Source of the DNA: Thermothelomyces thermophilus ATCC 42464
Lineage: Eukaryota; Ascomycota; Sordariomycetes; Sordariales; Chaetomiaceae
Direction of reading: 5' to 3'
Length of the DNA: 64,000 nt
NCBI RefSeq assembly: GCF_000226095.1
Contig: NC_016473.1
Location: forward strand, 1,240,001-1,304,000
The translations under genes were made by a program, and so were the position numbers. Within the stretch, counting starts at the first letter, position 1; every line of letters begins with the position of its first letter. The notes under the pieces were generated by a model. It was not told where the DNA came from. It did no database searches and saw only the letters and a list, made by a program, of their open reading frames with translations. Shown here in pieces: positions 31,287 through 52,200 of this stretch.

Positions 31287-34058
31287 CTTTGACGATGTTT
31301 GCTAATGTTGCGTGGTTGAGAATAGGTTCGCTGTGGTGTCGAAAACTTCCTGGGTAGGTCGATAAGTGATCTCGTGAACTTGATCGATTAAACTCGAGAT
31401 GCTGGAGAAGTAGATTTGTTTTTGTTATGTTTGAGCAAAGGGCGGGCGATGGCGAGCGGGCTCTTGGTGTCTTTAATACTTGTACTTGCTTGGGCAAACA
31501 AGCGAGACATTGAACGGGCGGCCAGAAAGATGGCCCACTGGTTCGGCAAGGTCGGGGAGGGACGATACAGTGTCGTATACGTGTGCCTTGCCAAATCAGT
31601 GGGCCGCGAGCAGCTTACCTCCACCACTTCGGCCGTAGTGCTGGAACGCCGACCTTGGCCGCGGCGGTACGGGGGCTTGGGGGTCGAGGACATGCGTCAT
31701 ATGCTGTCGTATGCGATCAGCCACTGCCCAGTTTCGAGGCTCAGTTCCCAGCCATCTTGCTTGCATCTAGTAGCGGGAACGCGCATGGTTCGCCAATGCT
31801 CTTTGTTGACACTCGAGCGCCTATTGGTTGCCAGTGCTAGAATGTTCGGCAACGCGGCACCTTCAGGTCATGACTTGACAAGTTCGGTGAAGATAGGGTT
31901 CTCGTAAATAGGCCGAACTGATTGATGCCAGCCACATTTCTTAGGTGCTGGAAGAGAGTAGGTAGCCTGCCAAGCAAGGTTGGGCAATACTTGGGAACGG
32001 CCTGAAGAAGCTTATCCGCGTCGCACAACCACTGCTTCAATTTCATCGGCGGCAGGGCGCATTGCGTCCAAGGCATTTTCCAGTTGCCAGTATGCAGAAC
32101 GAAATCACCAGCCCATCCAACATCCGCATGGCTGATTTTTTTTTTTATCTTTGCATCGGCCAAAAGCCAGCTGCGCCAGTCCTTGGTTTGGCTGTCCAGA
32201 ACATCATGTTCCGATTAGTTGGCTTTGACAAGGCGTGGCACATGCTCGGGCGGATCTGGTACCCCAGCATGTGCCCAGCCCAGAGCACGCTGGCTGATGA
32301 CATCATCCCCCTATCCGTTGGTTGCAGGGGAGGCGTGCAGAGTAACACTGTAGGGTTGTATTTCTCGACATGCGCGCTCGAGAAAATCTCTACCCTTTTG
32401 GCAGCGGCAGCAGGATTGAAGTCGACAATTCTAAGGCTAGCCTTAATGTGTGGAGGCGGATTTGCAGAACCCTGAAGCACTGCTTCAAGGAGCACAAACA
32501 GACAAGCAGAGCAGCTACTCCGTAGAGCAGGTGCCGAAAAAAAATATTTGGTATCTTTCCGCCCTCAGCTCGCTCGCTTCGACAAATTATCTGCCAATAA
32601 TTACCATATATGAATGTCATCACGATCACCTACACTAACCCTGCTTTCTGCTTCATACACAGATCAGGCATTCCTTGCAGCGGATGCCTCGGTAATTTGT
32701 CAAGTCTTAGAGACACCCGTATATATGCAGATGAAGGTATTTAAAAGGAGGAAAGCGAATAGAAAACTAACCAAACAAGAAGCAAAGATTGGAAGAACGA
32801 CAACGTCTATAGGTAAGTGAGAAGAGAACCAACAACGATTTTGAGTACTAGTCCCTGCTAGATCCAAGTTAGGTCAGAGTCACGGTCAATGGATTTGTTT
32901 TGGCGCTTTGCACCGTAGAGATGTTCGTAGGGTGGCCACCATAAGGTGAGGTGATTAGCTCTTAACGTGAACTCGCCTGATCACCTGGTACAAATTAGGC
33001 AAAAACCTGAGCTATGCCTTTCAGCAGAGCCATGCCCTAGTGCTAAGCGCTCCTTCCTCTGAACAGGAGTCTAATGGGCAGGGAGTTTTCGGCTAAGTGA
33101 AAGAGCCGGTTAGAAGAACGAGGCGTTCGTTTCTTGTTAGCAGAATGCAAAATTCCTTCGAGTACGAACAAATATGCCTCAGCTTAGAAAGATCGAGTAT
33201 GTGCATCCTACAATTCCTGCTGGAAATGACCGAAAATGAAATAACTGGCACGCTCTTTGAACTTATCCCGCGGGTCATTAGATACTACGGTTCTCCCTGC
33301 CTATGATCTTTCTTTTCTTACATATCGCCTACAAATAGGGGTATGTTCGCCATAGGGATGTCACTATAGTTGTGGGTAGCCGGGTGGTGAAAATGCCCCT
33401 ATTCTTCTCCATATAACCTTTTGTTAGCTGATTGAGAATTGAAGCAATGCTTCCGGTCTAATAAGTGCCTCGGACTTGAGATGTAACTCACTGACGGATG
33501 ATACACTCTGGTCAGAGTATCTATGAGACTACCTTGGTTTACGGCACTCAGGCGAGAGGGAGAGAGCGATGGAGTGGACATAACGATGGTAATTCATTAC
33601 AACCGCGAGTGACGCCAGAGACAGAGCGCGGTGGTTGCCCTTCAGAACATAACGGCCGAGAAGACAGGTTCACGTAAGATACACATGATGGTCATGGCGG
33701 CAGAGAAGATACAGAACCTGGAGAGGAGCGTAATCAGCGTTTTTGGGCGATGATATAACCCCTGGTATTGCCCCTCATGTAGGGCTATTATTAAGCACAC
33801 GGGTTCTCAAAGAACCTCTCCTCCACCCAGAAAGCTCAAGGGTGGCAGAACACTCAGCAGAGGAGATGCTCGCCCGCCTGGAGCAGTTTCCAAGGACACA
33901 TGTGCTGGCCATTGCGATCGTCTCTTTATACTAATGATATATTGCCTGCAACTCAAGTCTCACCTATAGTTACCTACTGCAAACTGATTACTATTTAATT
34001 ACTACTATTGTAGGTGAAGAATGATCCTTATTAGTCCTCCTCCTCCTCCTCCTCCTCC
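31287..34058. other. Gene-poor, less GC-rich stretch
   Basis: 2.8 kb with no recognisable gene. 32560-33990 is visibly poorer in G and C than its flanks and has many stops in all frames, so it could be decayed sequence or an old repeat. A short inverted pair GGCACATGCT / AGCATGTGCC occurs at about 32236-32275. Forms the left boundary of the accessory region. Confidence 0.45.
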
Positions 34059-34660
34059 TCAGGGCTTGCCGACCTCATCGGCCTCTCTCGGTTTCCTCTC
34101 CTTCGGGAGCCCGCCGGCGGCGACGCCCATGAGGGCGGAGAGGGGCGCGAGTCCGAACCAGATCAGCTGGCCGTCGAGCAGGCCGCTGCGGACGGCCATG
34201 GCGTAGAGGGCCGAGGTGGCGCCGGGGGCGACGGCGCGGACGGCGCTGGAGACGGTCAGGGCGAGGGCGTTGAGGGTGCCGAGGGTGCGGGGGGGCTCGG
34301 GGTGGCGTCGTTGAGGGCGAGCTGGGCGGCGGTGAAGGACATGGCGACGCCCGGGCCGCGCAGGCGACCCAGAACGCCGGGTTCGCGCCGGAGCATCCAG
34401 TTGAGGACGGCGTAGCCGGCAAAGGTGACCCGGTAGGCGGTGCCGCAGGCGCACAGGACCCTGCGGGTGCCGAGGCGGCGGAGAAGAGCGACTTGATGAG
34501 GCCGCTGTAGAAGCCGACGTCGGACTCGGGCAGGCGCCCGTTCCGCTGGACCATCTGCGCGACGAAGGGGAAGATGGAGAAGAAGGCGATGGGCTCCATC
34601 ATGCGCGCGAAGCACAGGAGGAGAACTTGTCGCCTTGGCAAGGACTTGCTCGGGCTCCTT
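34059..34660 (-). pseudogene. Relic of an MFS transporter (YCR023C / ZIFL-like, tetracycline-resistance type)
   Basis: The N-terminal part reads LPRRQVLLLCFARMMEPIAFFSIFPF (shown to 34640-34540; continues VAQMVQ..DVGFYSGLIKSLFS), which is TM1 and the start of TM2 of MFS drug transporters that open with LP-x-x-Q. The next coherent piece jumps to a late segment (RVTFAGYAVLNWMLRR), and then, in a third frame, to the C-terminal signature LGTLNALALTVSSAVRAVAPG followed by the last two TM helices. The pieces lie in three different minus-strand frames and the central 200 or more residues of a normal ~500-residue protein are missing. This is therefore an internally deleted, frameshifted remnant. It lies 1.5 kb upstream of the enzyme cluster and may once have been its exporter (inference). 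Confidence 0.72.
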
Positions 34661-36194
34661 GGGTGCCGTGTGCCGTGCCCATCCTGACCGGCAGTGTCAC
34701 GGTTCGTAGTGTATCCCACTCGGGAAGAGGACGCCCCGAGCTCGCGGCGGAGCAAGGGAGTGTCCTCTCCGGCCCCTACCTGGCGTGGCGGTTGTGATAA
34801 CGACTACATGGTGCTGACTTTGAATCTGTCGGGAAGGAGTCCATGAACAAGACGTGGACAAAGGTGTTGTGTATTGTGCTAACCATGGCGGTAGGCTAGG
34901 AGCACGTAGCGTAGTGTAAGGTCAAGCCAGGCGGCTGAGCTGCGAAAATGACCCAGTCGGAATTTAGATCGAGGTCCTTGTAACAAAAATAGTGCGACAG
35001 CGAATAATATCCCCCGCTTTCCCTTTACCCCTCTTTTTTGTTATTCTTTTTTTCTTTGTTTTGTTGCCCCCAATGACATGGAGGAACGCTCACTCTTCAC
35101 ACTGGCGGTGTGCTGAGACGCGGCACGGTGTGCACTCGCCTTCCTTGATAGGGAGGCGTTTGTGCTGTGTGTGATGCTTAGCGCAGCACTGCGGTGATCC
35201 CCACGCCTACAGGCTGCCAAAACATCGTTGGCGTTTCGTACATGACCGCAGTAATTACGGGGTACAAAATACGCCTTCACGGGTGTAGTGTTTGCATGGA
35301 TTTCGTACACTAGTACTCCGTATTTGATTCAGGGTCGCCGTGTGGTCTGCACTGTGCCGCATCTGGTTGTTGGGGTTGTGGGGCTCGCAACGATCCGCTC
35401 CGGGGATCCGTCGACTAGTTAACCTTATTCGGACGCAGATCATTTTCAGCCGCAGGAGCAGCGAGAAGATGCAGGGACCACAAATGACAACAATTCGTAG
35501 ATGGCTGCATTTTTTTTTTCGGTACGCTTCTGTAGCATACAGGTACACGCCCTGAGCTGAATTCCGAACCCGCGAAACTAATCTTGTCGGGAAGAACATT
35601 TGCTGACCAATAATGGTAGCTGATGGCTGGGTGCCTAGCAGAAGCAGGGCGTGGAAAGAGCGACCGCGTGTAGGACACGGTGGAATCTCTGGCTCCACTG
35701 GAACAACCTACTACGGCAGCTTCGGAAGCTGCGCGATCTGGTGAGATGGGTCAAACAGGGCCAGACTTGGAAGATGCCGCGACATTGCGAGCAGGTATTC
35801 CGCACATCATGGACCCGTGGCCAGAATCGGCCGACGAATCGGCAGTCACGTCCCGTACATGCACTAGTTAGCGCTTCAGCTGTTCGGGCGTCAGTCAAGG
35901 AATCTCCGTGGCCCTGGTCTCTGACCTCGCGCTCGCCGTGCAAGATCTGCTCTATGCATTAGCTGCTACCTTACACTAATGACGATTCACTCCATGCATA
36001 TTACGGGTAATCCGTACATAAGTACATAAAGTAAGTACGGAGTAGTGTATCTACAATGGCAACGAACTCGCTTTGGCAGATGACGACGAGCCCAAACGCG
36101 CCTTCCTCTTCTTACCCCAAGTTGTTTCCCACCACTTCCCACAGCTCTTCCTCCTGCACGCTCCCGCTTGAACTCGCACCGGGCAGACACCAAC
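34661..36194. other. Intergenic, left flank of the enzyme cluster
   Basis: 1.5 kb without a recognisable gene. It carries ACTAGTACTCCGTA at 35308-35322 and a repeat cluster AATCCGTACATAAG..AAGTACGGAGTAG at 36011-36045, about 150 bases before the ATP-grasp-like start. The minus-strand frames at 35041-35943 are not recognisable. Confidence 0.5.
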
Positions 36195-37943
36195 ATGAAG
36201 TCGACAAGAGCGCAGCCGCTGCGGCAGATCCACGCCTTCTTCGGCCCCGTCGGTGAAGCCCCGACCGGCGCAGCGACGGACGCGGCCATCTACCGCCAGG
36301 AGCAGGACATGCACGAGTCGTGCCTCCTGGGGCTGTGCCCGGTGGAGAAGTGGTACAAGGGCTCCTACGCGGCCGCCTGCCCCCGGCCCATCCTCGTCGG
36401 CAAGCATCACCAGGAGCAGCTCGAGCGGCTGCACCGCGCCCTTACTCTGGCAAATTGTTGACATTGTGCAGAGATGGTGGTCTGACCCGGCCGCCCAGTT
36501 CCCCCAGCGGATGCCGCTGGCCAAGGAAGAGGAGGAGCTCCTCCAGGTGCGTTGCGTTGCCCGTTTCCGGACTCGATTTTTCTTCTTTTGCCCCTCGTTA
36601 TGTTATGCCTAGTCCTAAGAGCAATCTGGCAGTGGATCGAGACTCAAGTGCCCCATAGCCTGCCCGAGTTCCGACACGTCCTCGGCTCCTGGAGACCCGA
36701 TTTCCTGGTCGGAGATGTTGTTCAAGGAGGACCGTATCCATCGGGCGAGATCTTCTGTCTCACCGAGATCAACGCTCGCTTTAGCTTCAATGGTTTCATG
36801 CACGAGGCGTATGGGCGACAGGCCCTTGTAAACCTCGGCGTGGAGAAGCGAGGATTGCGCTCCGAGACCAGTTCGCCTAAGGTAGGCCCATTTGGCTTTC
36901 TTTATGGCGTACGGCTTTGACACTGGCCGAGCCAGCCCCTTAAGTATTGTGCATGGCTGACACAATGATGATCACCACCCCCAAAGATCCTCGATGGGCT
37001 GTGCAGCCTGTTTCGCCTCGACCGCCCCTTGCACCTGTTGAAAGGCGAGGAGGCGGGAATCGACATCCACATGTTTGTTGATTTCCTCGAGCGCCGCTCT
37101 GGTCTGAGGCCGCGCATCATCGCGCCCAAGGACCTCCGCCTGGTGCCCGACGACGGGGCTCTCGAGGGTTACAAGCTATGCTGTCTGGCCCCGTCGTCAT
37201 CGTCTCCTCCTTCCGCCTCCACCCGCCTGCTCTCCTTCGGCGGGGAGACGCTGGAGGAGATACACCAGGTTGGCCTGGAGCTGCACCAGCGCGAGCTCTT
37301 CGCACTGCCCCGAGACGTGCTGCGCGCCGTCGCCCTCCGGTGCTTCAACGACCTCCGGGCCGTTCTGCTCGTCCATGACAAGCGGATGCTCGGCCTCGTG
37401 CGGGAGGAGCTCGACTCGCTGGTCGCCCGGTCCGTGCTGAGCGAGACGCAGGCCGACGCCCTCCGTCACGGCATCGCCGAGACGCTGCTCCCGGGCTCGC
37501 CAGCGATCCGGGAGCTGCTTCGGCGCTGCGCCGAGTCTCCGGACCTGAGGCGCGAATACCTCCTCAAGCCAATCCGGGGCGGCAAGGGGGCGGGCATCAT
37601 ATTCGGGGATGAGCTGAGCGCTTCCGAGTGGATGGCTCATCTGCAGCAGCTCGAGAACGCCGCTCAGCTCGTCCCCGGCCGTCCCACCTGGATCGCACAG
37701 CGGCTGGTGAAGCAGCGTTCGTACGATGTCGTGCTCGGGTCGCCCGCCAAGTCCGCCCGTCAACCCTTGGTCGGAACGTACCACGTCGTCCATGGTGAGC
37801 TCCTCGGTTTTGGGACATGGAGAGCCGGACCGGGCCGCATCTGCGCTGTGAGCAATGGGGCCGCGTGGATCTGCTCTGTCGTGCAGGAGGATGCAAGCGA
37901 CAGCGAATCTTCGTCAGAATGGCCGACCAACACCCAAATCTAG
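36195..37943 (+). CDS. ATP-grasp-like ligase of unknown specificity, apparent frameshift
   Basis: Three exons: 36195-36546, 36633-36881, 36987-37943. If one base is discounted in exon 1 the product is about 518 residues. Near residues 390-410 the protein has YLLKPIRGGKGAGI, the Lys-Pro and Gly-rich loop of ATP-grasp ligases, followed by WIAQRLVKQRSYDVV and a closing GTYHVVHGELLGFGTWRAG, the order seen in circularly permuted carboxylate-amine ligases. The middle segment GEIFCLTEINARFSFNGFMHEAYG resembles the acceptor-binding part of that group. It would join a carboxylate to an amine using ATP. Oddity: exon 1 is 352 nt, one more than a whole-codon frame allows. Around 36446-36456 the reading frame moves from HRALTLA to IVDIVQRWW without any splice signal, so there is either a one-base insertion in an AAA run or an assembly error. 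Family assignment is moderate; the substrate is unknown. Confidence 0.62.
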
Positions 37944-39022
37944 TTTCCTTTTCTCTTTTTTTTCCTTTTTTGGGTTAATTCACCAGTATAAGGTAATTTA
38001 CCGTAATACCAAAAATGAATGAAACGAAACGATGTACGGCGTACTTCGTCCTCCGTACGTAAGTCATGATACTTGACTACAATACTACTATGTAGTAGTG
38101 CGAGCAGCTGAGCCCCTGAGTATTCTGTTTACTCGGCGATCGGTCAGGGGGAGGTCCCGTTCTTCGCATGCCAAGAGCATGTCTCTGGACTGGCCAGCTG
38201 AAGGACTCACCCTGTCCGACGTGGCCGAGTGCGACCTTAGCGATGTTCTTTGGCTTTCTGAAACACCACACTACTTGTAGTTGGTCACCAGCCCAAAATG
38301 GTTGCTTAGGGCTGGCTGTTCCTTACTGATCGTGAAACCCGGCGCTGATCAGCCGCCCTGAGCGCGCAAACCCTCGTCATTTTCCGGATCAATGTGAGAG
38401 AGGGGCACCCTTCCAAACTCGTGCAGGGGCTTGTGTGGCCCCAGAGCCGTGGATCCCGCGCGCGCTACCGAGAGATCACAAAGCTGAGCCGAATACATCC
38501 CAGACACAGCGACTCACCTCTCTTGACCGCTCCGGGGCATCGGGTCTCCATTTGGGCGAACCCCAGTGGCTCTTAGCAAGGAGAGTTCCTCAAAGCTACC
38601 CTTCCGCGAGACTCCATGGGTCCCTGAGCGGACATGTTCGCGGGAGTGTGTGTTGCTTCGTTTGTATGTGCTTGGTTATGTGGTGCCAGACTCGGCAGTA
38701 CGTGGGTGCCAGCGGCACACTTTGTCCAACCACCCCCTCGCCCTTCCCATTCCCCGGGGGGGGGGGGGGGGGGATAAGTGATCTGAGGTCCTGGGGCTGT
38801 TCCCAACTCAAATTGGAGTTACCGATACTTCATCACGCCGGCCCGGTCCATTGACCAACTCAAAAAAGCATATCTGATTTTTGCCTGATCGTAGAGGCCA
38901 GACTCGTTCTCAAGCTCTGTGCCCTAGTTAGTTAAGTACTTAGTGTTCGTTGCCAACAGCTCCCCGGCAGTCAGTCAATCAACGGCCGAACCTTGTTTCG
39001 TTTCCCATCGTTTCCCACCACC
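37944..39022. other. Intergenic between ligase and dioxygenase
   Basis: 1.1 kb between two genes on the same strand. It has a GTACGGCGTACTTCGTCCTCCGTACG repeat, shown in part (38034-38059: TACTTCGTCCTCCGTAC), and a run of 18 G at 38756-38773. The dioxygenase 5' region follows. No gene seen. Confidence 0.5.
38756..38773. repeat. G18 homopolymer
   Basis: Eighteen consecutive G after TTCCCC. Prone to length change and to sequencing error. Confidence 0.85.
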
Positions 39023-39230
39023 ATGCAGCACCTATTGCATCCCCTCAAGCATTCCGGGGTTGGCGCCCTGCCTACTCGTAACTTCCCTACTTTCTCCTCT
39101 TCCCATCCCAACATGCTCTTTTTTTTCATTTCCGTTCCCGTTTCGGAGCTGTTGGCTCAAGATCGGGGACACGGTTTTGCTGAAACTTAGCCATCTTTTT
39201 TTCATTGGCTTCTCGTGGTCTAGGTGTTCT

Positions 39231-39261
<31 letters not shown>

Positions 39262-40104
39262 ACCACCACCACCACCAGCAATGCAGTACCGCATCTGAGC
39301 GTGAGCCGGCTGGACTGCCTGCAGCAACCAGGCCACATCCAGGAGGTCAATCAGCTGCTCGAGCGGGAGGGCATGGTCAAGCTCAGCCTGGGCTTCCCGG
39401 ACGACGAGAGCAGGTACCTGCACGGCCTGATCGTGGGCCTGGGCCGGTTCCACGGGCACGGCCAGCCGGTGGACCACAGCGCGACGCGGGGGTGGTTCTG
39501 GGACATCCGGCCGAGCGCGAGCCGGTTCCAGAGCAACGGGTGCCAGGCGCGGTCCGAGACGATGCGCGAGTTCCCCTGGCACACCGACTGCAGCTACGAG
39601 GACCGGCCGCCGCGCTACTTCGCCCTGCAGGTCCTCCAGCCGGACCGGCGCGGCGGCGGCGTCTTCTCGGCACTCGCCGCCCGCCACGTCCTCCGCCAGC
39701 TCTCGCCCGCCGCCCGGGACGCCCTGAGTCGGCCCGACTTCCGCATCGCCGTGCCGCCCGAGTTCGTGCGGTCCAGCGGCAGGACACACCTCGTCGGCAG
39801 CATCCTCGCCCCGGGTTGTTCCGCATCCGCCTCCGCCTCCGCCTCCGCCTCCGCCTCGATCCGGTTCCGGGAGGACATCGTGACGCCGCTGAGCGAGGCA
39901 GCGGCCCGGGCGATGGACGAGCTCAAGCGGGCGCTCCAGAGCCCGGAGGCGAGACGGGAGACGCTGCACCTCACGTCCGAGACCCTACCCCGCGGTTCTG
40001 TCCTGCTGCTGGACAACCGGCGCTGGCTCCACGCGCGGAACGAGGTCCGCGACCCGGAGCGCCATCTGCGCCGTGTCAGGTGGGACGCCGTTCCGTTTGT
40101 GTGA
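39023..40104 (+). CDS. TauD/TfdA-type Fe(II)/2-oxoglutarate dioxygenase
   Basis: Proposed exons 39023-39077 and 39224-40104, 311 residues. The catalytic domain (about 45-305) has the iron facial triad His138-x-Asp140 in FPWHTDCSYED and distal His288 in NRRWLHARN, with Arg-rich RHLRRVRW after it for 2-oxoglutarate. It should hydroxylate, desaturate or cleave a small carboxylate or amine using O2 and 2-oxoglutarate. A Thr-rich N-terminal linker and a Ser-Ala repeat (residues about 218-230) are low complexity. Exon 2 has no ATG before the domain; the frame opens cleanly onto ATG 39023 (MQHLLHPLK) through a 146-nt intron GTAACT..CTAG that restores codon phase, so this start is likely but less sure than the domain. 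Same strand as the upstream ligase. Confidence 0.78.
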
Positions 40105-41033
40105 GTGCGCGGAGCGGAGGCAGGGGAAGAAGAATGAAGGGGAGGAGGAGTGGTGAGAAGAGGAGAGGGTAGGAGAGGGGAAAATAATTAGATTAATAAT
40201 GAGGCCATTGATGAGGTCAAAATTGAGAGGTTGAGTTTGCTGTTCAAAAAAAAAAAAAAAATTAAAGGGAAGGAAACCAAAGCACTAAATTAGACAGTAT
40301 TTGTTTGCGTTTTTTAAACCTAACAAATCCGAGGGGGAAATTGTGGTGTAGGTAATTAATTAATTCATCATTTTCATCCTGTAAAATGCTAACAACAGAG
40401 ATCAATCACTGGATTGGGGGTGGGGTGGGGGGATAGTGGCGTTGCGGAGTTATTGAACTTTCTAGTGATTTTTTTCGCCCCGATATTGCCGGCCAAGATA
40501 TTTCAAGTCGTTGACGCATTACAGACAGCCTGATGGAAGATGGTTCCAATTGATGGAAGAAGGTTGTAGTATTGTAAATAGTTCAAAAGTGCGATGTCTT
40601 CTTCCTACGCTTGCTAGCCCTGTGGCTCTGTATAAGTAGAGGATAGGAACAAAGAACCCTCCGTTTGCCAGCCCGTTTGCCAGATCCACAGGGCTTATCT
40701 TATCAAACCTTACATGATGGACGCGTCCGTAGATAACGTACTGCATCACAGCCCATTGAATTTTGCACACTTACTATATGCGAGGAACTATCTGAAACTT
40801 CTTGAACCAGGTTGCAGGAGGCATAATCAAGTCTTGTTTTCAAACGTGAGGCTGGCCGCCTCGGGTCTTTTTTTCTATTTCGTAATCGCCCTCTCAATCC
40901 AGCGAATAATTATACTCTGTACACGAATCGCGCCTTCCTGGTGGATTGGGATGCGCACACCAGGCATCCACGCTATGTTGGTATGAAGGTGTGTTCCTAA
41001 TTCCACCATTCATCGAACCTCTCTTTCCACTTG
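40105..41033. other. Convergent 3' region, dioxygenase and decarboxylase
   Basis: About 930 bases, AT-richer than the genes, with an A16 run at 40246-40261, TTAATTAATTAATTC near 40355, and no recognisable gene. Holds both 3' UTRs. Confidence 0.55.
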
Positions 41034-42742
41034 CTAACTCCTATTCTCTCCGTTTCGATATACGACCTCTGGCCCCGGGTTCACGTACAAAATTTCGTAC
41101 GTATTGGGAAATCCGTTGAAGGTTGTCGCGCAGGTTACCGAGTATGCTGCCTCTTGAGTCAGGGCGAGCGTCCACAAAGAAAAAAATAAAAAGAAAAATG
41201 AAAGAAAAAAAAAAAAAAAAGAGAAAAAAAGAAAAGAACAAAAGAACAAAAAGACTCACCTCCCATGTCTGTGTATTTCAACCAGTCGCCGATCCTGGCC
41301 TCGCAGGGCAACGTCGCCCGTTCGGAAACGCAGTCGAAGCCGTCGCAGGTTGGGCCCCAAACGGAATACAAGTGTTTCCCTTGGGCCCGGGCCCGCCGCG
41401 GCGGTGCGCCGGGCTGGTCCTTCTCCTCCTTGTCGTCGTCGTCGACGGGGATCAGGGTCGGGACGAACACCTCGTCTTCGACCAGGCGGTTCATGAAGCA
41501 GCCGTAGACGCCGTCGTTCTGGTACAGCATGTCCAGCTGCGGCCCGTCCACGGCACCGGTGCCGTCGCCATCATCATCGTTGTTGTCGTGGTCGTGCGTC
41601 CGACGGGCGATGATCTTGCACGCCAGCGTGTAGAAGCTGCGGGCGTAGAAGCGGCCGGGCTCGGCGATGATGCGGACGCGGTCGCCGCTGGGGAATTCGC
41701 TCTCGATCGCCAGGCGCAGGGCGGACGCCATGGCTTCGAAGTTGGCGTCGGTGAAGCCGCCGCCGACGTCCAGGATGGTCAAGTCGAAGCCCACGTCCCT
41801 CGCCTGGTCGAAGATGCGCCGCGCGTCCCGGACGGCCGCGTGGAGGGCCTTGGGATCCGTCGCTCCCGATCCTGTCTCCGGGAAAATAGACACTGTGTTA
41901 AGACAGGATGAAATAGTTAAAGAGGGGGTGGGGGGGGGGGGTGGGGGGAAAAGAGAATTGGGGACGACGGCGGCATTACCAATGTGGAAGCAGACGCCGA
42001 CGACTTGGAGACCGAGGGCGCGCGCCTTTAGGAGCAGGGGGCGGGTGGCGTGCAGGGACGCGCCGAACTTGTTGCTCAAGCACACGGCGGCCGTCTCGTC
42101 GTCGGCGTAGATGCGGAGCAGCAGGCGCATGTCCGGGCTGACGCTCGCGATCTTGTCCAGCTCGTCGGCGTTGTCGAAGGTGGTCAGCAGGACGCCGCGG
42201 TCCGAGGCCATGTGCAGGGCCGACGCGGCCTTGCACGGGTGGGTGTAGACGATGCGCGACGGGTTCACCCCGAGGCCGAGCACCAGCTCGATCTCGGCCG
42301 GCGAGGCGCAGTCGAAGCCGAGGCCCAGGTCGGCCAGGAACCGGAGGAGATGGGCGTCTGAGTTGCATTTGACGGCTCCAAGGCGGGGAAGGGGGAAAAG
42401 GGGGCAGGAGTCAGCAACGCTATCATGATAACACCATGGCATGGTCGTCTTCGTGTTGAACCTGGCAAGCGAGGGAGCCGCAAACGTCAAACTGAAGGAG
42501 GAGGAGGAGGGTGGGGGAAGGGAAAGAAACCCTTGAGCAGTCTCACCATAGAAGGGCTGGATGTGCGGAAGATGGTGCATCCACCGCTGGTGCTGCCCGA
42601 GGGTTCTGGTCGAGTCTGCTACGACGAAGGGGAGGTCTGCCTCGGGGGCGAAGGGCGTCTCCCGCAGCTCCGCGATTCTCCTTCGTATCAGCACGTCGAC
42701 ACGCTCGTGCGAGAGCAACTCGGCGGCGGCGGGGGTCATCAT
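41034..42742 (-). CDS. Ornithine-decarboxylase-like PLP enzyme (fold type III)
   Basis: Four exons (minus): 42742-42547, 42375-41980, 41871-41260, 41146-41034; 438 residues. The family motifs are in order: PFYAVKCN with PLP-binding Lys68 (split by intron 1), CFHIGSG, LDVGGGF, EPGRFY (Glu268), WGPTCDGFD with catalytic Cys373, and MGAYSVTCATTFNGF at the C terminus. So it is probably an active decarboxylase of a basic amino acid (ornithine, lysine, arginine or diaminopimelate). It is not a clear housekeeping spe-1: the N terminus is short and there are two acidic insertions (DHDNNDDDGDG about 291-301 and DDDDKEEKDQPG about 341-352). It sits head-to-head with the adenylating enzyme gene across about 980 bases, so shared control is likely. 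Introns 171, 108 and 113 nt. Two adjacent ATGs (42742, 42739) serve as start. Confidence 0.88.
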
Positions 42743-43720
42743 GTTTTACGTTCCTTTTGCTCCAGCAACCTCTGCCAACAGCAGTGTCCACCTTGCCGCC
42801 TCCCGGTTTGTTCAGCAGAGTGCAGCGCTTGCTTTTGGTTTTCTTGGATGATATATACGGTCACGGCCGAGGCAAGTTACATCCGTTGCCGCGTTCGCTT
42901 CATCATGTGTTATGGATATACCCACAGTCGCCTTGGACAGGCCACTTAAAGGCGACATGTCGCGTGGGAATCAAAACCTTCGTCTTCCTGGCACCTCATG
43001 ACGCCTTCGCACCGACAAAAGCACTTCCCCCACGGAGTAAGACGAGCGGTGATGGCCGGGACGAGCCGAATCGTGGTTTACCACTAGTGTGGTTCGCGGT
43101 ACACTACCCCGGAACCCAGCTGAAGCGGCGCGCTGATCTTTGCATTTTAAAGCATGCGCTTGGCGGCCCCAGCCAACACTGGTCGATCGATGTTTCTGAT
43201 CCTGTCTTACTAGTAGTGGGGGGGAGGGAGATGATTCAAACAGTGCCATGACACTGTACGGATCTGAGGGACGTCTTCACACACGGAATACTCCGTACCC
43301 CTGTGCTATTGTAAATACAACACACGACACACATAGCAGCTGGTTCGTGTATGTATGTACGAAGTATTGCGGTATGGATTACATACGGACGTACAAACAC
43401 GATACCTCGGATTTCCGTGGAGCACAAGGGAAAAAAAGGGAAGAGCCGGGGGGGGGGAATACTCCGGACAGGAGACGCACCCGCGTTTCGCGCGGGACGG
43501 AATATAACCGCAATGCCGCCGTCTTACTGCACATGAACAACGAGCAGAGACAGCTCCCAACCTGGCTCAGAGACCCCCCCCCCCCCCCCCCTCCTTTTCT
43601 CTTCACCCTCTCCCGTACAACAGAAACAAGACACAACTACTACAGTACGTCATCATCACTTCAGACCGCACGGGGTTCCTAGCTGTGGTGAGAGAGACGG
43701 TTGACTTGCAAACTGCCAGG
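42743..43720. other. Bidirectional promoter, decarboxylase / adenylating enzyme
   Basis: 978 bases between divergent ATGs. It carries the repeat GTACGGATC..AATACTCCGTACCC..GTATGGATTACATACGGACGTAC in pieces (43254-43395), a C18 run at 43574-43591, and GAAACAAGACACAACTACTACAG just before the start. The enzymes are probably co-expressed. No clear operator was recognised. Confidence 0.5.
43574..43591. repeat. C18 homopolymer
   Basis: Eighteen C in a row, 130 bases upstream of the adenylating-enzyme start, next to CTCCTTTTCTC. Confidence 0.85.
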
Positions 43721-45603
43721 ATGAAACCCGGCGCCTACTCCCTGAACGAGGTCCTTGCTGTCGCGAGGATCCATCCCTTCTACAACCCCGCGGTCCAGTA
43801 CCCTCCTGACGAAGAGGGCATCCGGGCCGTCTTGGAGTCGGCGGCAAAGGAGCAGTCGGCTCCGGACTTGGGCCGTGTGCCCCTCACCACGAAGAAGGAC
43901 TTGTAAGGACAATCTCGACCATTGTGCCTGTTTCCTTGTCCCCCCCCCCCTTCTCCATTCTCCCTCCCTCCCTGTTCTCTCCCTCTATGAATATATGAAT
44001 ATATGCATTTGCTGACGCAAACGGGGGGAGCCACAACCTTTCAAGGTACAAAACAATCGAGCGGCTGGCGGGTGATGCGAGCCCCGACAACACGTACCGC
44101 CGGAGTGCCTACCTGAGCATCACCGGTGGCGGATCTGGCGGCCTCCCCATGTTGTTCGCGACCGACGCGGCCGAGAACCGGGCACAGCGGGCCCGAATGG
44201 GCAACCTGATTCGGAACTGCCGTCTCATCGGGCCGGGCGACTGGGTCTTGACCACCCATGCTAGTGGTCACTTTTACCGGTATGCGCCTGTCTGAATTTC
44301 TTCCTAGCCTGCCCCAGGGTAGCGGGCTCTCAGACACGGAATGTGCGGTGCCGGAGCGAAGAGAACTAATAGTTTGTTTGTTTTTATTTTCCCTCTTTTT
44401 TCTTTTCTAAAGAGAGGAGAAAAGAGAAGAAAGAAAATAAAAAGAAACGGCAAAGGAAAGGAAAGAAGAAGCTAAAGGGTCGCCGGTTATAGATCACTCG
44501 ATCTCACTCTCGAGATCCTCGGGAACGCCGGCGCGAGCGTCCTGTCGGCCGGGCACAACATGGAACCGGCCGAGGTCGCCGCGGCGCTGGCGCACTACCG
44601 CGTCAACGTGCTGACCGGCGACGGCAGCCAGGTCGTCCGCATCGTCCGCCACATCGCCTCGCTGCCCGCCGACGAGCGCCACCGCATCCGCCTGACCAAG
44701 ATCATATACACCTCCGAGCCGCTCACCCCGAGCCAGCGCGCCTACATCGCCGACGTCCTCGGCCCTGGGGTCGCCATCGGATCCATGCTGGGCAGCTCCG
44801 AGGCCGGGCCCTGGGCCGTCGGCCCCCTCCGCGCGCCCCTCGAGGCGACAGCAGAAGAAGCAGAGCAGAAGCAACAGCACGAGGACGCTTCGGCGGCGGC
44901 CGATGCGGGAGCCACCGACTTTGTTTTTGACACGCGCACCATGGTGATCGAGATCCTCGACCCGTCGTCGTTGTCATCCTCCTCCTCCTCCACCACCACC
45001 ACCACCGCCGCCGCCTCCGCCTCCGCCTCCGAAGCAAACAGAACAAGCCAGCAGCCGGTGCCGGTGCCGGTGCCGGAGCCGGTGCCGGAGGGGACGCCCG
45101 GGATCGTGGTGCAGACGTCGCTGCAGCGGCTCAAGAACCCGCTGGTGCGCTACGTCAGCGGCGACGTCGGGTCGCGGCACCCGCTGCCGGCGTCGCTGGC
45201 GGCCGTCGTGCCCGAGGGCGAGCGCGAGCACATGCGGGTGCTGCGCCTGCGCGGCCGCGACCGCCGCTTCAGCTTCAAGTGGTACGGCGCCTACTTCGAG
45301 TTCGACCGCCTGGCCGCCTTCCTGCGCGCCCCGGAATGGGGCATCCTGCAGTGGCAAGTCGTCCTGGCTAGCGTCGAGGCCTCCTCGCCCGAGGTCGCCC
45401 TCGAGATCCGACTTCTGCTGCCCTCCGGGCCCGCCCGTCATGGCGCCGCAGAGTCCGAGCTGGTCCGGGCCATCGAAACCTTCTTCTTTGTCCAGGCCGA
45501 GAGCCGCCATCTCTTCCGGATCAAGTTCCTCAAGGACATCACCGAATTCGAGAGGAGCTGCACCGGGGGGAAGGTGATGAACTTCGTCGACAAGGTGCAC
45601 TAA
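43721..45603 (+). CDS. PaaK-like adenylate-forming enzyme (phenylacetate-CoA ligase family)
   Basis: Three exons: 43721-43902, 44046-44279, 44493-45603; introns 143 and 213 nt; 508 residues. The N-terminal IHPFYNPAVQYP resembles the PaaK opening, residues 85-95 SITGGGSGGLP are the ATP-phosphate loop (family SSGTTGxP), SLDLTLEILGNAGASVLSAG follows, and EPLTPSQRAYIADVLGPGVAIGSMLGSSEAG matches the acyl-adenylate A5 region. YVSGDVG is the A7-like Asp motif. A low-complexity insertion (Ala/Thr/Ser and Pro-Val repeats, about 310-360) lies between the N- and C-lobes. The last exon ends in GGKVMNFVDKVH, reminiscent of the C-terminal catalytic Lys segment. It should activate a carboxylic acid as AMP ester, possibly to a CoA thioester. 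No fused carrier or reductase domain is present, so partners must lie elsewhere. ATG 43721 follows GCCAGG. Confidence 0.8.
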
Positions 45604-46236
45604 CCGACCGGTATGAGAGCCTCGGAGCATGCTGTCAGCTAACTGGCTTGCTGTACTCTAAGAGGGTGAGAGAGAGTCTGTATATGAGTGAGAGAGACCT
45701 GGGATCTCTTTAAAGATAACCATATATGTGCTGTTGAATGTCGTGTTTAGGTCACTCCATCACTCTGGCTCTGTCTGTGACCATGACTGACCGTCAGGGA
45801 GGAAGGGGGGGAGGGGAAAGATGCTTGCCATTCTCAAGTTGCTCATCAACATACACACATCGTGTACAACATCCAATCTCGTCGTGTTCTTGTCACGGGG
45901 CGGCCGTCACTTGCCACCAAGTATCATCAGTCGCCCGACAAAAACATGAACAAATACATCATCGCCTCATCAACTTCGTCAGAGACTGCCAAACACATCA
46001 TGTCTCTCGTGCTACTCATCAGTCCATAACACACCATCGTCATCATGAGCCCCCGTCCATCGTCAAGTCACAAAAGAAGAAAAAGACGAGAAAGGAGGTA
46101 GGGGAGGAAGGGGGAAAATGAAAAGAATAAAAGGAAACCATGTCTCATCATCACCTTTCCAACCAATCAAGCATTCCCCCTTAGCCTGGGCAACTCGTCA
46201 TCTCATCTCGTTTCCACTCCATAGAACCACAACCCC
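45604..46236. other. Convergent 3' region
   Basis: 633 bases between the adenylating enzyme and the giant gene. GAGAGAG repeats (45660-45705), GGGAGG runs, and AAAAGAAGAAAAAGACG near 46070. No gene seen. Confidence 0.6.
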
Positions 46237-49200
46237 TCACGAACTGCTCGAAAAGAACCGCTTGATAGCGGCCCTGATACCGCCCTTTTCCTTGGCCTCC
46301 TTCTCCTTGGCCCGCTCTCTCTTCTCCTGCCTCTTTGCCCTGTGGGCCTGCGAGTCCACATCGCCACCGCTCGCCGACGACGACGACCCAGCCACGGCCG
46401 CCTCGCCTGCCGACGCAACCGAGGCCTTGGTAGCCTTCTGCTCCGCCGTCGACGGCCTGTCTCGCTCACTCTCCCTCTCTCTCTCCCTCTCCCTCTCCCT
46501 TTCCCTCTCCCTGTCTCGGTCTTTGTTTTCCCTGCTGCCGCGCTCCTCGGACCGGCGCACCCTGCTGGTGCTGCTGCGCCTGAGCTCCGGCGGAGCGCCA
46601 CCGCCCGTGACGGTCGTCTTGGAGGCGGAGCCCGACGACGTCGGCGGCGGGCCGTTCGACGCAGACGTGTCGCGGGGCCCGACGCCAAAGTTGACCTCGA
46701 GCACGCTCTGGCCGTTCTTGATGTCGAAGAACCTCTTGCTGGCCGCGGGCGAGGGGGGGATGGATACGTTGGATGGCCTGGGCTCCATGCTGTGCCGGCT
46801 TTGGCTGTGCCGACGCGAATCGCGGTGGTGCGAGTGGCGGTGATGCTCCGAGGACCGCTCTGAGCGCTCGCGCGGTGCGGACCCGTCCCTGTCCCTGTCT
46901 GCGCTGGCTGGCGAGCTTGGCGCGCCGTCCTTGGCCTTCTCCAGCTCGCGGGCACGGCGCCGCTCCTCCTTGCGCTTCTCGTGAGCGGCCTGTTCCTCGG
47001 GGGTCCGATGTCTCCGGGAGTGAGGGCTGCTCCTATGCTCGCCGAAGCCGGCGTCTTCGCGAATCGGAGTGCGCGGGGGTTCATCCTCGCCACGCGAGCG
47101 GACCGATGCGTGGCTGTCTGACCTGGACCGGTGGGAACGTCTGGATCCATCCTTACTTCCGTCTCGGCTGTCGCGGTGAGACCGGTGGCGGGAAGAATGG
47201 TGGCTGTGGCGTCGCGAGCTGTGGGCAATCCTGGAGTCCTCGGCCTTGAGAGGTTCCCTGATCTTGGCGTCTACTGAGAGGTCAGCAACAGGTTCAGGAA
47301 GATCTCTCGACCTGGATCTGCCCCTATCCTGCTCGATTCCGGACGGATCATCCTGGGGAGATGCGGCGTGCACCTCGGCCTCCTTCCCCTTCCCCTTCGC
47401 ATCAGAATGCATTTCGGGCGAACCAAGGACACTGGTCTCTGGACTCGCGAGTCTCGGACTACCCGGCGGACTGAAGGCCTCGGCGGTAGCATAGAGCACC
47501 ACGGCGGCGGCCACCATCTCCTCGGCCTGCTTGATTGTCTTCCTCCGCTGCCGGCGCAGGCTGCGCATCCGGCCTAGCTGCTTAGCCACAGGATCGTCGA
47601 GGTCAGGAAGAATGACAGCAGGTGTGGGTACACGGAAGTCCAGAACGACGTCTCCTTGCTGGCCGGATCCTGTTTCTTCGGTTGTCGGCCTTGGAGCACC
47701 CAGAGAGCCATCGTCAGCCTTCGTTTCCTCGCCACCAGCAACAACAGCAAACCGCGCGACAGATTCCTCACCATCCTCAGAAGAAGCTCCCTTCTTTTCC
47801 TCACCCTTTGCCGCTTCTTCTTGGGCTGGTGCGTCCTTCTCGACAATGTGGAAGGACTCGGAGAGCGGGGCCACTTTGTCCACCACAACCTGCGACGACT
47901 CCATCGCCTCGGCTTGCTCAGCCGGCTTATGCGACGGTGGCACCTTGTCAGGTCTGGCCCCTTCTCCAGGAATCTCCTCGGCAGTAACGGCGTCTGAGGC
48001 CGCTGGCCCATCAAGCTTGCTCGCGAGTTCCTCAAGACGCGAGATTGTCGGAGGCACATCAAGTTTGTCAGACAAGTTGTGCGCAACCAGAGCAGTTGCT
48101 ACTCCCACCGTCCCCACGGCTCCCGCTATGCCTGCCCCGACCGCGAGCTTCTTCGCCGAGAGGTCTTCAGTGGCGGCGATTTCGGCTTTGTCATCAGGCA
48201 GTGGCCCTGCCGCGCCGTGAGGCAGCGAGAGCGTTGTGTCGGTGGGCAGAGTAAGTGTTGTCTCCGTCGGCAGAGGGTACGTCGTCTCGGTCTTGAGGGA
48301 GAGAGTTGTGTCTCTCGGGTCGTAGTCTGAAGCAGTACCGTGCACCACGCGTTCAACAGGGCTATCCCCGCCAACTTGACTGGCAATGCCGAAGTTGGCA
48401 GCCGTAGCATTGTACGCGACAGCATAATCGGCGACAGCAACCTGTACTGAGGGCTTCTCTTCGACGACAGATGGTGCTAGTGTCGTTTCATTCACAGCCA
48501 CGCCAGGAGCGTCGTTAGGCTTGGCGGTGATCGTCTCAAGCTGCCCTGCTTCCTCCCGGGCAGGTGCTGGGTTGGTGTCGCGCTTTGGTGAAGCGAGTGT
48601 CTCTGATACATTGGCCACCTGCTCGCTTGGAGAGATGATTTTATCTTCGGCCGTGGCTCGTGTTTGCTCAACGTCGACAGCGGCAGTGATTGCGGTGTCT
48701 TGCGAAGGCTGTTGCTCGAGTACGACCGGTCCTTCAGTCGACAGATGGGAGGTCTGCGCACTCAAGACGACGATGGACTCATCTGCCGCGGCATCGGCTG
48801 CCGGGACACCCTCTTGGGACGGCAATTCCGAGGTAGAGACGTGCTGCGACGACGCGGCCGACTGGTCAATGAGGCCTGATTCACCAACGAGCTGGAAGCT
48901 CTCGGTGCCTGCGGCAACAGGCTCGTCGGCCGCCAAGTCGCGGGAGGTGGCGACATCCTGGCCATCCTCGGGCTGCTCAGATACAATCACCTTCTCAAGG
49001 GAAGAAGCGGTGGATTGTTCGGCAGCGGCCGGGACCTCGGCGGTGGGAGTCACAATTGACTGGTTGTCATGCGGAATTGAGGCAGCCTCCTCAACCATAA
49101 CATACTCCTCGGAAGCCGTCTCTGGGCCAACCTGCTCCGTCTCGCGCGGTGATGAGACTTCGCTCGGCTCTGGCTTGCCAGTCTCGAGGTGCGTTGCCTT

Positions 49201-52200
49201 GAGATCTGGCTCGGTCACCTCCGTCTCGGCGGCGGCCTCTGTTGCTGCCTCGCTGGCCGTGGCCTGAGAGGTAGGTTCAAGGTTGTCGTCTGGCTCTTCC
49301 TTGACGGCAGGTTCCTCGACGGTCGCAGCATCCTTTGAAACGGTTTCGTCGACTGCCCGAGCCACCACGTCTTCAGCCTCGTTACCCTTGGTAGGCTCCT
49401 CGACAGCAGCAGGCTCCGCGAGAATGACGGACTGCTCAGCCGGCACGCCCTCGGTGTGCGCGACGGATTCCCCAGCCTTGGTATCTGCCTCTGCTTGAGC
49501 AATTGGCTCGGCATGCGCATGCTCCTCAGCTTCAGCAGGCTTCGGGGCTTCGACGGCCCCCGCAGCCTGGATCGCCTCTTCAGCCTCAACGGAAGGCGCA
49601 GGTGCAACAGTTTCCGGCGTGCTGGCAGGCTCCTCGGCTACAGATGGATCATCTACTACGGCATGCTGATCAGCTTCGGCCAACTGTTTGGTGCTCACAG
49701 CATCGGCAGCTTGGACCGAATCCTCCGCTGGGGTCAGTTCCTCAACTGCCACGGTCTCTTCAGCTGAGGGACTGTCGACTTGAACAACGCCATCAGCCTC
49801 GGGGATCTCCGTAGTCTGGCCCTTTTGAACGTCATCAACCTCGCCAGTTCCCGTAGCGCTAGGAGATGATTCAACGATGGGGGGTGGCTCAGCCGTGACG
49901 GGCCCTTCCACACCAGGAGGCGCGTCAATGTTGGCAGGGCCCTCGGCCTCTACGTTTTCAGTGGCAACAGCTTCCACTTCAGATCCAGGCTTGTCCACCG
50001 TGGCTTGGGTAGGCTCAGGAACAGAAGGCTCAGTGGTCGGGTCCTGTGTCGTGGTAGCGACCTGGGCGATGGCTTGGACTTCCTCGGCGGTGAGCTCGGC
50101 ACCAGGTTGAGCGACAAGCTTCGGGTCCTCTGTGGAAGGATGTTCCTCGGGTACGGTTGCCTCGCCAGGCACTGTTGCTTCCGGAGTCGGCGAACCAGCT
50201 GCTGCTTCATCGATGGCCTTCGCGGCCGCTGGAGTTTCTGGCGATGCTTCGACGGCCGGGACGCTCGAGGCAACCTCAGCAGCCGCAGTTGCATCACTCT
50301 CAAGGGAGCGAGAGGTGTCAACCGCGAGGTCATCCGCCTTCGGCTCAGGCTCCTTCACATCGTGTGGCACCACCGTCGCATTATTCTTGCTATCTTGGGC
50401 TTCCAGCACCTGTGCCGGCTCCTCGGCAGCAACGTTGGGGGCCGCAGGCTCCTCGACAACCGAGGCCGTCTTCTTATCTTCTGCTGTATCAGAAGTAGGT
50501 TCCTGAACCGTCTCCTGTACTTCTGGTGCCTGCGTCGACTCCTCGGTTGTAACGGTTACCGGGGCCTCTTTCTCGTCGACTTGAACCGGCTCAGACACAG
50601 TCTCGGCTTCGGCAGCTGCATCTGCGTCATGACTGGTCTGGAGTGGCACATCTCCAGCCTCAGTGATGTCCTCCTCGACAGGGACTCGTTCCTCCTTTTC
50701 AGCAGTACTCTCCCCCTCAGCAACCTCTGGAACAATCTTTTCGAGGACGGCCTCCTCGCTTGTCTCAGCGCCGGGTGCTGCCGACTTCTCAGCTTGCAGT
50801 TCCTCTTCAGCCGCCTCAACAGACTGGGCCGAGGTTTGCTCCGAGGCGGCCTCCTTGATGTCGGTGCTAGGGAGGTGTCCATCCTCTTGGGTAACAGGAG
50901 CAGGCACGTCAGCGTTGCTTGCCTCTGCAGGGAGGGCTTCCTCGCCCGCACTGGTCTGTTCCGTTTGCTGCTGCGGCTCTGTTGTCGTCGTTTCGACATC
51001 CGTTTGAGGTTTGTCGTCGCCGCTTTCTTGAGCCAAGGACTGGCCAGCCACTGATTCACCAGGCTCTCCGGCACTGGTCACTTGAGCTTCAGCCTCGGCC
51101 TCGGCCTCAACCTTAGCCTCAGTCTGAGTCTCAACTTCCGTGGTTGGCGCGATCTCAGAAGCGGCTTGCGGCAGAGGCTCTTGGGGGTTTGTGCTGCCCT
51201 CGGTGCCTGCCGTCGTAGCAGTCGCGGAGCCCTGTTGTCTCATGAGTAAAAGCACGTAATAGCAACTTGGCACTAAGCCTGCACTTACAGCCTGCTCGCC
51301 GTCCGCTGTGCGTTCTGATGTTGCAATCTCATGAACCTGCTCCGCGCCAGCGTCGGAACAGACCTTTTCCGCGTCATTCTCATTATCTCCGGCCGTAGCA
51401 CCGGTATTAAGTTGTTTGGGGGTATCAGGGGTATCATCATTTACAGTCGAAGTCGTCAAACTCGTGTCCTGGGTATCATGGGTATCCGGAAGTTGCAAGT
51501 CCAAGTCCGTGTCCGTTGGTTGTGAAATGCACTCTGGGGCGTTCTGCTCCGCCGTTCCACTACCACCGGGGGTATCAAGCAATACTGGGTGTGCCTCACC
51601 TGTCGCCTTCTTCTCAGCCACCTTCTGTTCGCTGGGAATTGGCCCAACCGTGTCTTTGCTCTCTCCGTCCTCTGTCTTAGATTCCTTGGGCTTTTCTTCC
51701 AGTGTAGTCTCCTCTTGTGCTGGTGCAGGAGCCGTCTCTGGACCTTCTTTTCCGTTTGCCTTGGGGTCTTCGGCCTTCTCGTCCTGAGATGGAGCTGGGG
51801 TGGGCGTGTCAGCCGGTTTCTCTTCGGCTGACGGAAGGGCTCCTTCGACTGCCGGCTTAGTCGTTTCAGGTTCGACCGCCACTTCCTGGGCGGGCTCTGG
51901 GGCAGTCTCGGGCCGAGCTTCTTGACCGAGAGACTCAGATTTGGCTTGTTCAACAGGCTGAGGCTTGGCCTCCTCGGTAGGCTCCGCTTCTTCTTCAGCT
52001 GGCTTAGCCTTGCCTTCGTCAGACTCAACCTTGACTTCCTCAGCTGTTTTAGCCTCCTCAGCCGGCTCCGGTTTAGTCTCCTCCACAAGCTCTGCCTTGA
52101 CCTCTTCAGTCGATGCAGGCGCAACTTCGACGGGAGCAGGTTCCTCCGCCGGTGCCGCCGGTGCCTCTTGGGTGGGCGCTGTCTTGGCTTCCTCTGCAGA

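What the first reader, a model, noticed from the sequence alone, without database searches (positions are those of the whole stretch)
36195..45603. Candidate backbone-free biosynthetic cluster: ATP-grasp-like ligase, TauD dioxygenase, ODC-like decarboxylase, PaaK-like adenylating enzyme
Four enzyme genes with complementary chemistry lie side by side in 9.4 kb, flanked by gene-poor DNA on the left and an unrelated giant gene on the right. A basic amino acid decarboxylase can make an amine, a PaaK-like enzyme can activate an acid, an ATP-grasp enzyme can form the amide, and a 2-oxoglutarate dioxygenase can modify the result. No PKS, NRPS, terpene or isocyanide signature is present, so cluster finders that need a backbone gene would miss it. 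I know of no described fungal cluster with exactly these four parts. The cluster and its product class are my inference.
Basis: partly seen in the sequence, partly recalled or inferred. Interest (0 to 1): 0.82.

Follow-up and report, generated by a model that had tools for sequence, protein, structure and literature searches.

The report
Fungal E-64-type protease-inhibitor gene cluster
Four neighbouring genes in a heat-loving fungus match, in enzyme type, a gene set recently shown in another fungus to build E-64, a small cysteine-protease inhibitor, and so would likely make a related compound, although one of the four has a reading-frame break in this genome sequence.

Summary
The window is from Thermothelomyces thermophilus ATCC 42464. 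Its four genes are an ATP-grasp ligase homologous to the solved enzyme Cp1B (PDB 9cjn, E 3e-147), a TauD-type dioxygenase, a second ornithine-decarboxylase-like gene, and a PaaK-fold adenylating enzyme. These are the four enzyme types of the fungal E-64 cluster published in 2025 (PMC12568646). The likely product is an epoxysuccinyl-(hydrophobic amino acid)-amine cysteine-protease inhibitor; which amino acid and amine is not determined. One oddity remains: in this assembly cpB exons 1 and 2 are in different frames with no room for an intron. This may be an assembly error, a loss, or (improbably) recoding. The four catalytic residues tested in Cp1B lie downstream and are conserved. New member of a known kind; modest interest.

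The parts
36195..37943 (+). cpB-like gene: ATP-grasp ligase, likely joins epoxysuccinate to an amino acid; exons 36195-36452, 36451-36546 (other frame), 36633-36881, 36987-37943
   Evidence: PDB 9cjn Ligase Cp1B, E 3.2e-147; no other copy found in the genome; residues R139, D141, E163, N165 of Cp1B conserved
36445..36461 (+). reading-frame break between cpB exons 1 and 2; the start-codon frame ends at the TGA at 36459-36461
   Evidence: matches in two frames overlap by 8 bases; contiguous in 109 of 110 homologues that score in exon 1
39023..40104 (+). cpA-like gene: Fe(II)/2-oxoglutarate dioxygenase (TauD family), likely fumarate epoxidase; exons 39023-39077, 39224-40104
   Evidence: PF02668 E 4e-14; 88% or 86% to T. 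fergusii P0241; H138, D140, H288 (HxD...H, the iron-ligand motif as recalled) invariant in 120 aligned sequences, own included
41034..42739 (-). cpC-like gene: ornithine-decarboxylase-family PLP enzyme, likely supplies the amine; 4 exons, 439 aa
   Evidence: PF02784 and PF00278; ODC chains 7odc E 4.9e-94 and human 1d7k E 2.1e-93; 196 of 398 residues identical to the genome's other ODC. Not compared with Cp1C
43721..45603 (+). cpD-like gene: PaaK-fold adenylating enzyme, likely amide bond synthetase; exons 43721-43902, 44046-44279, 44493-45603; = MYCTH_2300559
   Evidence: 100% to P0121; 371 proteins at E <= 0.001; predicted fold closest to PaaK1 2y27
34059..34803 (-). decayed transporter-like fragment (MFS type by eye) beside the cluster; membership in the cluster not shown
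   Evidence: N-terminal piece 65% identical to a longer copy at C1:3180516; later pieces in other frames, middle missing; no Pfam match

Best explanation
These four genes match the four enzyme types of the fungal E-64 cluster and are predicted to make an epoxysuccinyl-amino acid-amine cysteine-protease inhibitor, although in this assembly the ligase gene has a frame break between exons 1 and 2. Inferred steps, by homology to the characterised A. flavus enzymes: the dioxygenase epoxidises fumarate to (2S,3S)-trans-epoxysuccinate; the ATP-grasp ligase joins it to a hydrophobic L-amino acid through an acyl phosphate; the decarboxylase supplies a diamine such as putrescine or cadaverine; and the PaaK-like amide bond synthetase adenylates the pseudodipeptide and couples it to that amine. 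Shown here: homology of the ligase to Cp1B, enzyme families of the other three, conserved catalytic residues, adjacency of homologues in other genomes, and a separate second ODC. Not shown: any activity or product, or that cpB yields a full-length protein in this strain.
For: cpB: Cp1B (PDB 9cjn) is the only PDB sequence match at E <= 0.001, E 3.2e-147, chain residues 103-516. The window's exons 2-4 are identical at 228 of 410 aligned residues to A. flavus P0020, which carries all eight residues that the paper numbers in Cp1B; the four tested catalytic residues are kept. cpA: TauD family, HxD...H residues invariant in 120 aligned sequences, own included. cpD: 371 homologues, PaaK fold. Adjacency by hand-transcribed locus tag: B-D within 6 tags in 19 of the 31 genomes in both lists, B-A in 14 of 19, A-D in 11 of 14. 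Of the 12 B-D misses, 9 show the same longest-contig length for both proteins (read by eye) and 3 do not. The paper describes the same four enzyme types in one cluster and reports the A-B-D cassette in more than 100 fungal species. The genome has a second ODC.
Against: cpB frame break. The four Cp1B pocket residues F175, V228, V477, I488 read H, I, T, V here, so the amino acid may differ. Sequences of Cp1A, Cp1C and Cp1D were not identified, so those genes were not compared with them directly. Tags are not close in 12 of 31 (B-D), 5 of 19 (B-A) and 3 of 14 (A-D) genomes. The paper notes that Cp1B and Cp1D homologues also occur in clusters not homologous to the E-64 one.
Confidence: 0.9

Rival explanations
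1. The cluster is of E-64 type but inactive in this strain: the frame break in cpB and the decayed transporter beside it are signs of loss. (This and the next rival concern the state of the cluster, not its type.)
For: Frame break with no room for an intron; no second cpB found in the genome; transporter fragment with its middle missing. In T. fergusii and Immersiella caudata, A and D homologues were listed but no B among the 120 rows shown of 488.
Against: No break seen in the cpA, cpC and cpD models. cpB exons 3-4 differ at 6 of 398 residues from T. heterothallicus P0001, proportionally fewer than cpD (24 of 496), so no sign of relaxed constraint.
Confidence: 0.4
2. The frame break is an assembly or sequencing error and all four genes are intact.
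For: Downstream exons are strongly conserved against T. heterothallicus; no break was seen in the other three gene models.
Against: T. heterothallicus model P0001 also starts after the break, in what is intron-1 sequence here, which hints that the break is shared; the genome is assembled in 7 contigs.
Confidence: 0.45
3. Same enzymes, different product: a non-epoxide acyl amide, with the dioxygenase acting on another substrate.
For: Altered amino-acid pocket; the paper reports malyl and fumaryl analogues when cp1A is omitted.
Against: The dioxygenase's listed homologues include many encoded next to cpB or cpD homologues.
Confidence: 0.08
4. Chance neighbourhood of unrelated genes, the decarboxylase being the housekeeping ODC.
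For: None found.
Against: Adjacency in other fungi; separate second ODC.
Confidence: 0.01

Closest known systems
E-64 biosynthetic clusters cp1/cp2 of Aspergillus flavus (acp1/acp2 of A. oryzae), PMC12568646
   Same: Same four enzyme types in one cluster; ATP-grasp ligase directly homologous to solved Cp1B; the pathway needs no NRPS
   Different: cpB frame break in this assembly; four pocket residues differ from Cp1B; decayed transporter fragment alongside; species not named in the paper's main text. Gene order of cp1/cp2 not seen (figures not held)
Cyanobacterial mfa cluster (Microcoleus), as described in the same paper
   Same: Same pathway logic; MfaA also makes epoxysuccinate, by the paper
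   Different: About 20% identity to Cp1 enzymes by the paper; not compared here; our scan of bacterial and archaeal genomes confirmed no relative
AnkG of the NK13650 pathway, as described in the same paper
   Same: Fungal ATP-grasp relative of Cp1B (about 30% identity by the paper)
   Different: Different pathway; not compared here

Membership tests
Fungal E-64-type cluster | Cp1B-type ATP-grasp ligase | tested here: met
   9cjn E 3.2e-147; R139/D141/E163/N165 conserved
Fungal E-64-type cluster | Fe(II)/2-oxoglutarate oxygenase beside cpB | tested here: met
   TauD Pfam match; HxD...H residues conserved; homologues within 6 tags of cpB homologues in 14 of 19 genomes. Not compared with Cp1A itself
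Fungal E-64-type cluster | ANL-family amide bond synthetase beside cpB | tested here: met
   Fold closest to PaaK1 2y27, E 4.6e-21; homologues within 6 tags of cpB homologues in 19 of 31 genomes. Amide-forming activity not tested
Fungal E-64-type cluster | PLP decarboxylase (by the paper the one gene not conserved in relatives) | tested here: met
   ODC family, distinct from the genome's other ODC; not compared with Cp1C
Fungal E-64-type cluster | A working cpB (one of three genes that the paper finds essential) | tested here: inconclusive
   Frame broken in this assembly; whether this is real or an error could not be settled
Fungal E-64-type cluster | Produces epoxysuccinyl-amino acid-amine | not testable with these tools
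   needs expression and LC-MS

The most novel reading that the evidence does not exclude
The frame break is real, shared in the genus and translated by +1 ribosomal frameshifting at a UGA followed by C, the kind of site used by yeast ornithine-decarboxylase antizyme (recalled), so that polyamine level would gate the ligase that starts a polyamine conjugate.
Probability: 0.03. Interest if true: 0.75.

Novelty: new member of a known kind. Interest (0 to 1): 0.27.

Why it matters
It extends a recently solved pathway for a widely used protease inhibitor to a thermophilic fungus used in industry (recalled). The enzymes might be heat-stable amide-bond catalysts (inference). A cysteine-protease inhibitor cluster in a protein-production host would also be practical to know about. 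It shows that reading raw sequence can find a backbone-free cluster, but the kind itself is already described.

Tried and rejected
Chance neighbourhood and single-ODC readings were rejected. An intron across the cpB break was rejected because the matches overlap. A stimulatory RNA structure at the break was looked for and not found: z -0.24, 81 of 200 shuffles fold at least as well, which tells against recoding; no Rfam family reached its gathering score in 33000-46500 and no tRNA was found in the window. The bacterial and archaeal scan with the cpB alignment gave 23 pattern matches, none confirmed; given the paper's 20% identity for cyanobacterial relatives this is not evidence of absence. 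A first tblastn test of exon contiguity was too strict (exon 1 hit by 1 of 120 homologues) and was redone by pairwise alignment. The tree joins the window's cpB to T. heterothallicus P0001 and then Dichotomopilus P0002 (support 1.0 each), but the next node has support 0.575, so Cp1-like versus Cp2-like was not resolved. The MFS part of P0190 did not match the left flank significantly (best E 7.8). Paper searches; 'epoxysuccinyl' with 'Thermothelomyces' gave 0 papers in that library. Of PMC12568646 I saw the abstract, the section list, Results parts 1 and 2 of 3, the Discussion, and found passages including Extended Data legends; figures and supplements were not seen. Other papers were seen only as search listings.

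Full report
What is there. The window lies at G000:C2:1240001-1304000 of a 38.7-Mb genome in 7 contigs. The spliced adenylating enzyme is 100% identical to MYCTH_2300559 of Thermothelomyces thermophilus ATCC 42464. Four genes fill 36195-45603: ligase (+), dioxygenase (+), decarboxylase (-), adenylating enzyme (+). Genome searches with relatives of the ligase, dioxygenase and adenylating enzyme found no second copy at E <= 0.001.

Ligase. Exons 2-4 match one solved structure at E <= 0.001, Ligase Cp1B 9cjn, E 3.2e-147, and 488 proteins in the large database, of which 120 are listed; the listed rows that carry an organism name are fungal. A. flavus P0020 carries all eight residues that the paper numbers in Cp1B (R139, D141, E163, N165, F175, V228, V477, I488). 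The window keeps the first four, whose change to alanine abolished or significantly attenuated activity in the paper, and reads H, I, T, V at the four pocket positions. The same H, I, T, V set occurs in P0003 and P0011 of Aspergillus (A. novoparasiticus, A. parasiticus); whether these are Cp2B orthologues was not verified.

Frame break. Searching the genome with the intact Dichotomopilus ligase gives exon 1 at 36195-36452 and exon 2 at 36445-36546 in different frames. Among the 112 listed homologues of at least 460 aa, 110 score in exon 1; in 109 of these the two pieces abut and in 1 the offset differs. The start-codon frame stops at a TGA at 36459-36461. The T. heterothallicus model P0001 starts after this point, in what is intron-1 sequence here. 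That is compatible with a shared break but does not show it. Exons 3-4 differ from P0001 at 6 of 398 residues, while cpD differs from P0122 at 24 of 496, so the ligase shows no sign of relaxed constraint. No RNA structure beyond shuffled controls supports recoding.

Other genes. The dioxygenase is a TauD-family protein with a short first exon. H138, D140 and H288 are invariant in 120 aligned sequences, own included. The decarboxylase has both ODC Pfam domains and matches solved ODC chains such as human 1d7k. The genome's other ODC-like gene, a 462-aa spliced model, is identical at 196 of 398 aligned residues; that it is the housekeeping copy is inferred. The adenylating enzyme has only a weak AMP-binding Pfam match below the curated cut-off, but its predicted fold (pLDDT 83.6; 32 sequences) is closest to PaaK1 2y27 at E 4.6e-21, and the amide bond synthetase McbA 6sq8 appears further down at E 4.4e-13.

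Adjacency elsewhere. From hand-transcribed locus tags, B and D homologues lie within 6 tags in 19 of 31 genomes found in both lists, B and A in 14 of 19, A and D in 11 of 14. Examples with all three in a row are Trichoderma viride ACHAQJ_005330-005332, Neonectria ditissima AK830_g4830-4832 and Fusarium zealandicum FZEAL_3939-3941. Of the 12 B-D misses, 7 have JGI 'DRAFT' tags, which often are not positional (recalled; one of them differs by 9), and 5 have other tags (CDV56, FDECE, N7519, QQS21, RU639). By the contig lengths shown, both proteins share a contig length in 9 of the 12; FDECE, QQS21 and RU639 do not and may be separate copies or scattered genes. All 5 B-A misses and all 3 A-D misses have DRAFT tags.

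Known system. PMC12568646 describes these four enzyme types in one A. flavus cluster: cp1A epoxidises fumarate, cp1B makes the first amide, cp1D the second. cp1C was not needed in A. nidulans, and the A-B-D cassette occurs in more than 100 fungal species. Thermothelomyces and Myceliophthora have 0 occurrences in its main text; its supplements were not read, so the species may be listed there. The finding is therefore a new member of a known kind.

Commitment. I hold at 0.9 that this is an E-64-type cluster. Whether it works in this strain is open: error and loss are about equally likely, and recoding is improbable.

Noticed in passing
34059-34803 (-): Decayed transporter-like fragment (MFS type by eye, no Pfam match); its N-terminal piece is 65% identical to a longer copy at C1:3180516.
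   Followed up: partly
46237-53085 (-): Very long open frame (2282 codons) rich in Glu/Ala/Pro/Val next to the cluster, no Pfam match at E <= 1.
   Followed up: no
T. fergusii VTH06DRAFT_2217-2218 and Immersiella caudata B0T14DRAFT: A and D homologues are listed but no B among the 120 rows shown, so cpB may be broken, unannotated or absent there.
   Followed up: no
P0224, P0237 and P0190: Two cpD-like models carry a TauD domain and one carries MFS transporter domains; these may be true fusions or gene-calling errors.
   Followed up: no
about 44980-45100: Low-complexity Ser/Thr/Ala/Pro-Val insert in the adenylating enzyme; model confidence is under 50 at residues 303-322, and protein length differs between Thermothelomyces species (508, 496, 490 aa).
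   Followed up: partly
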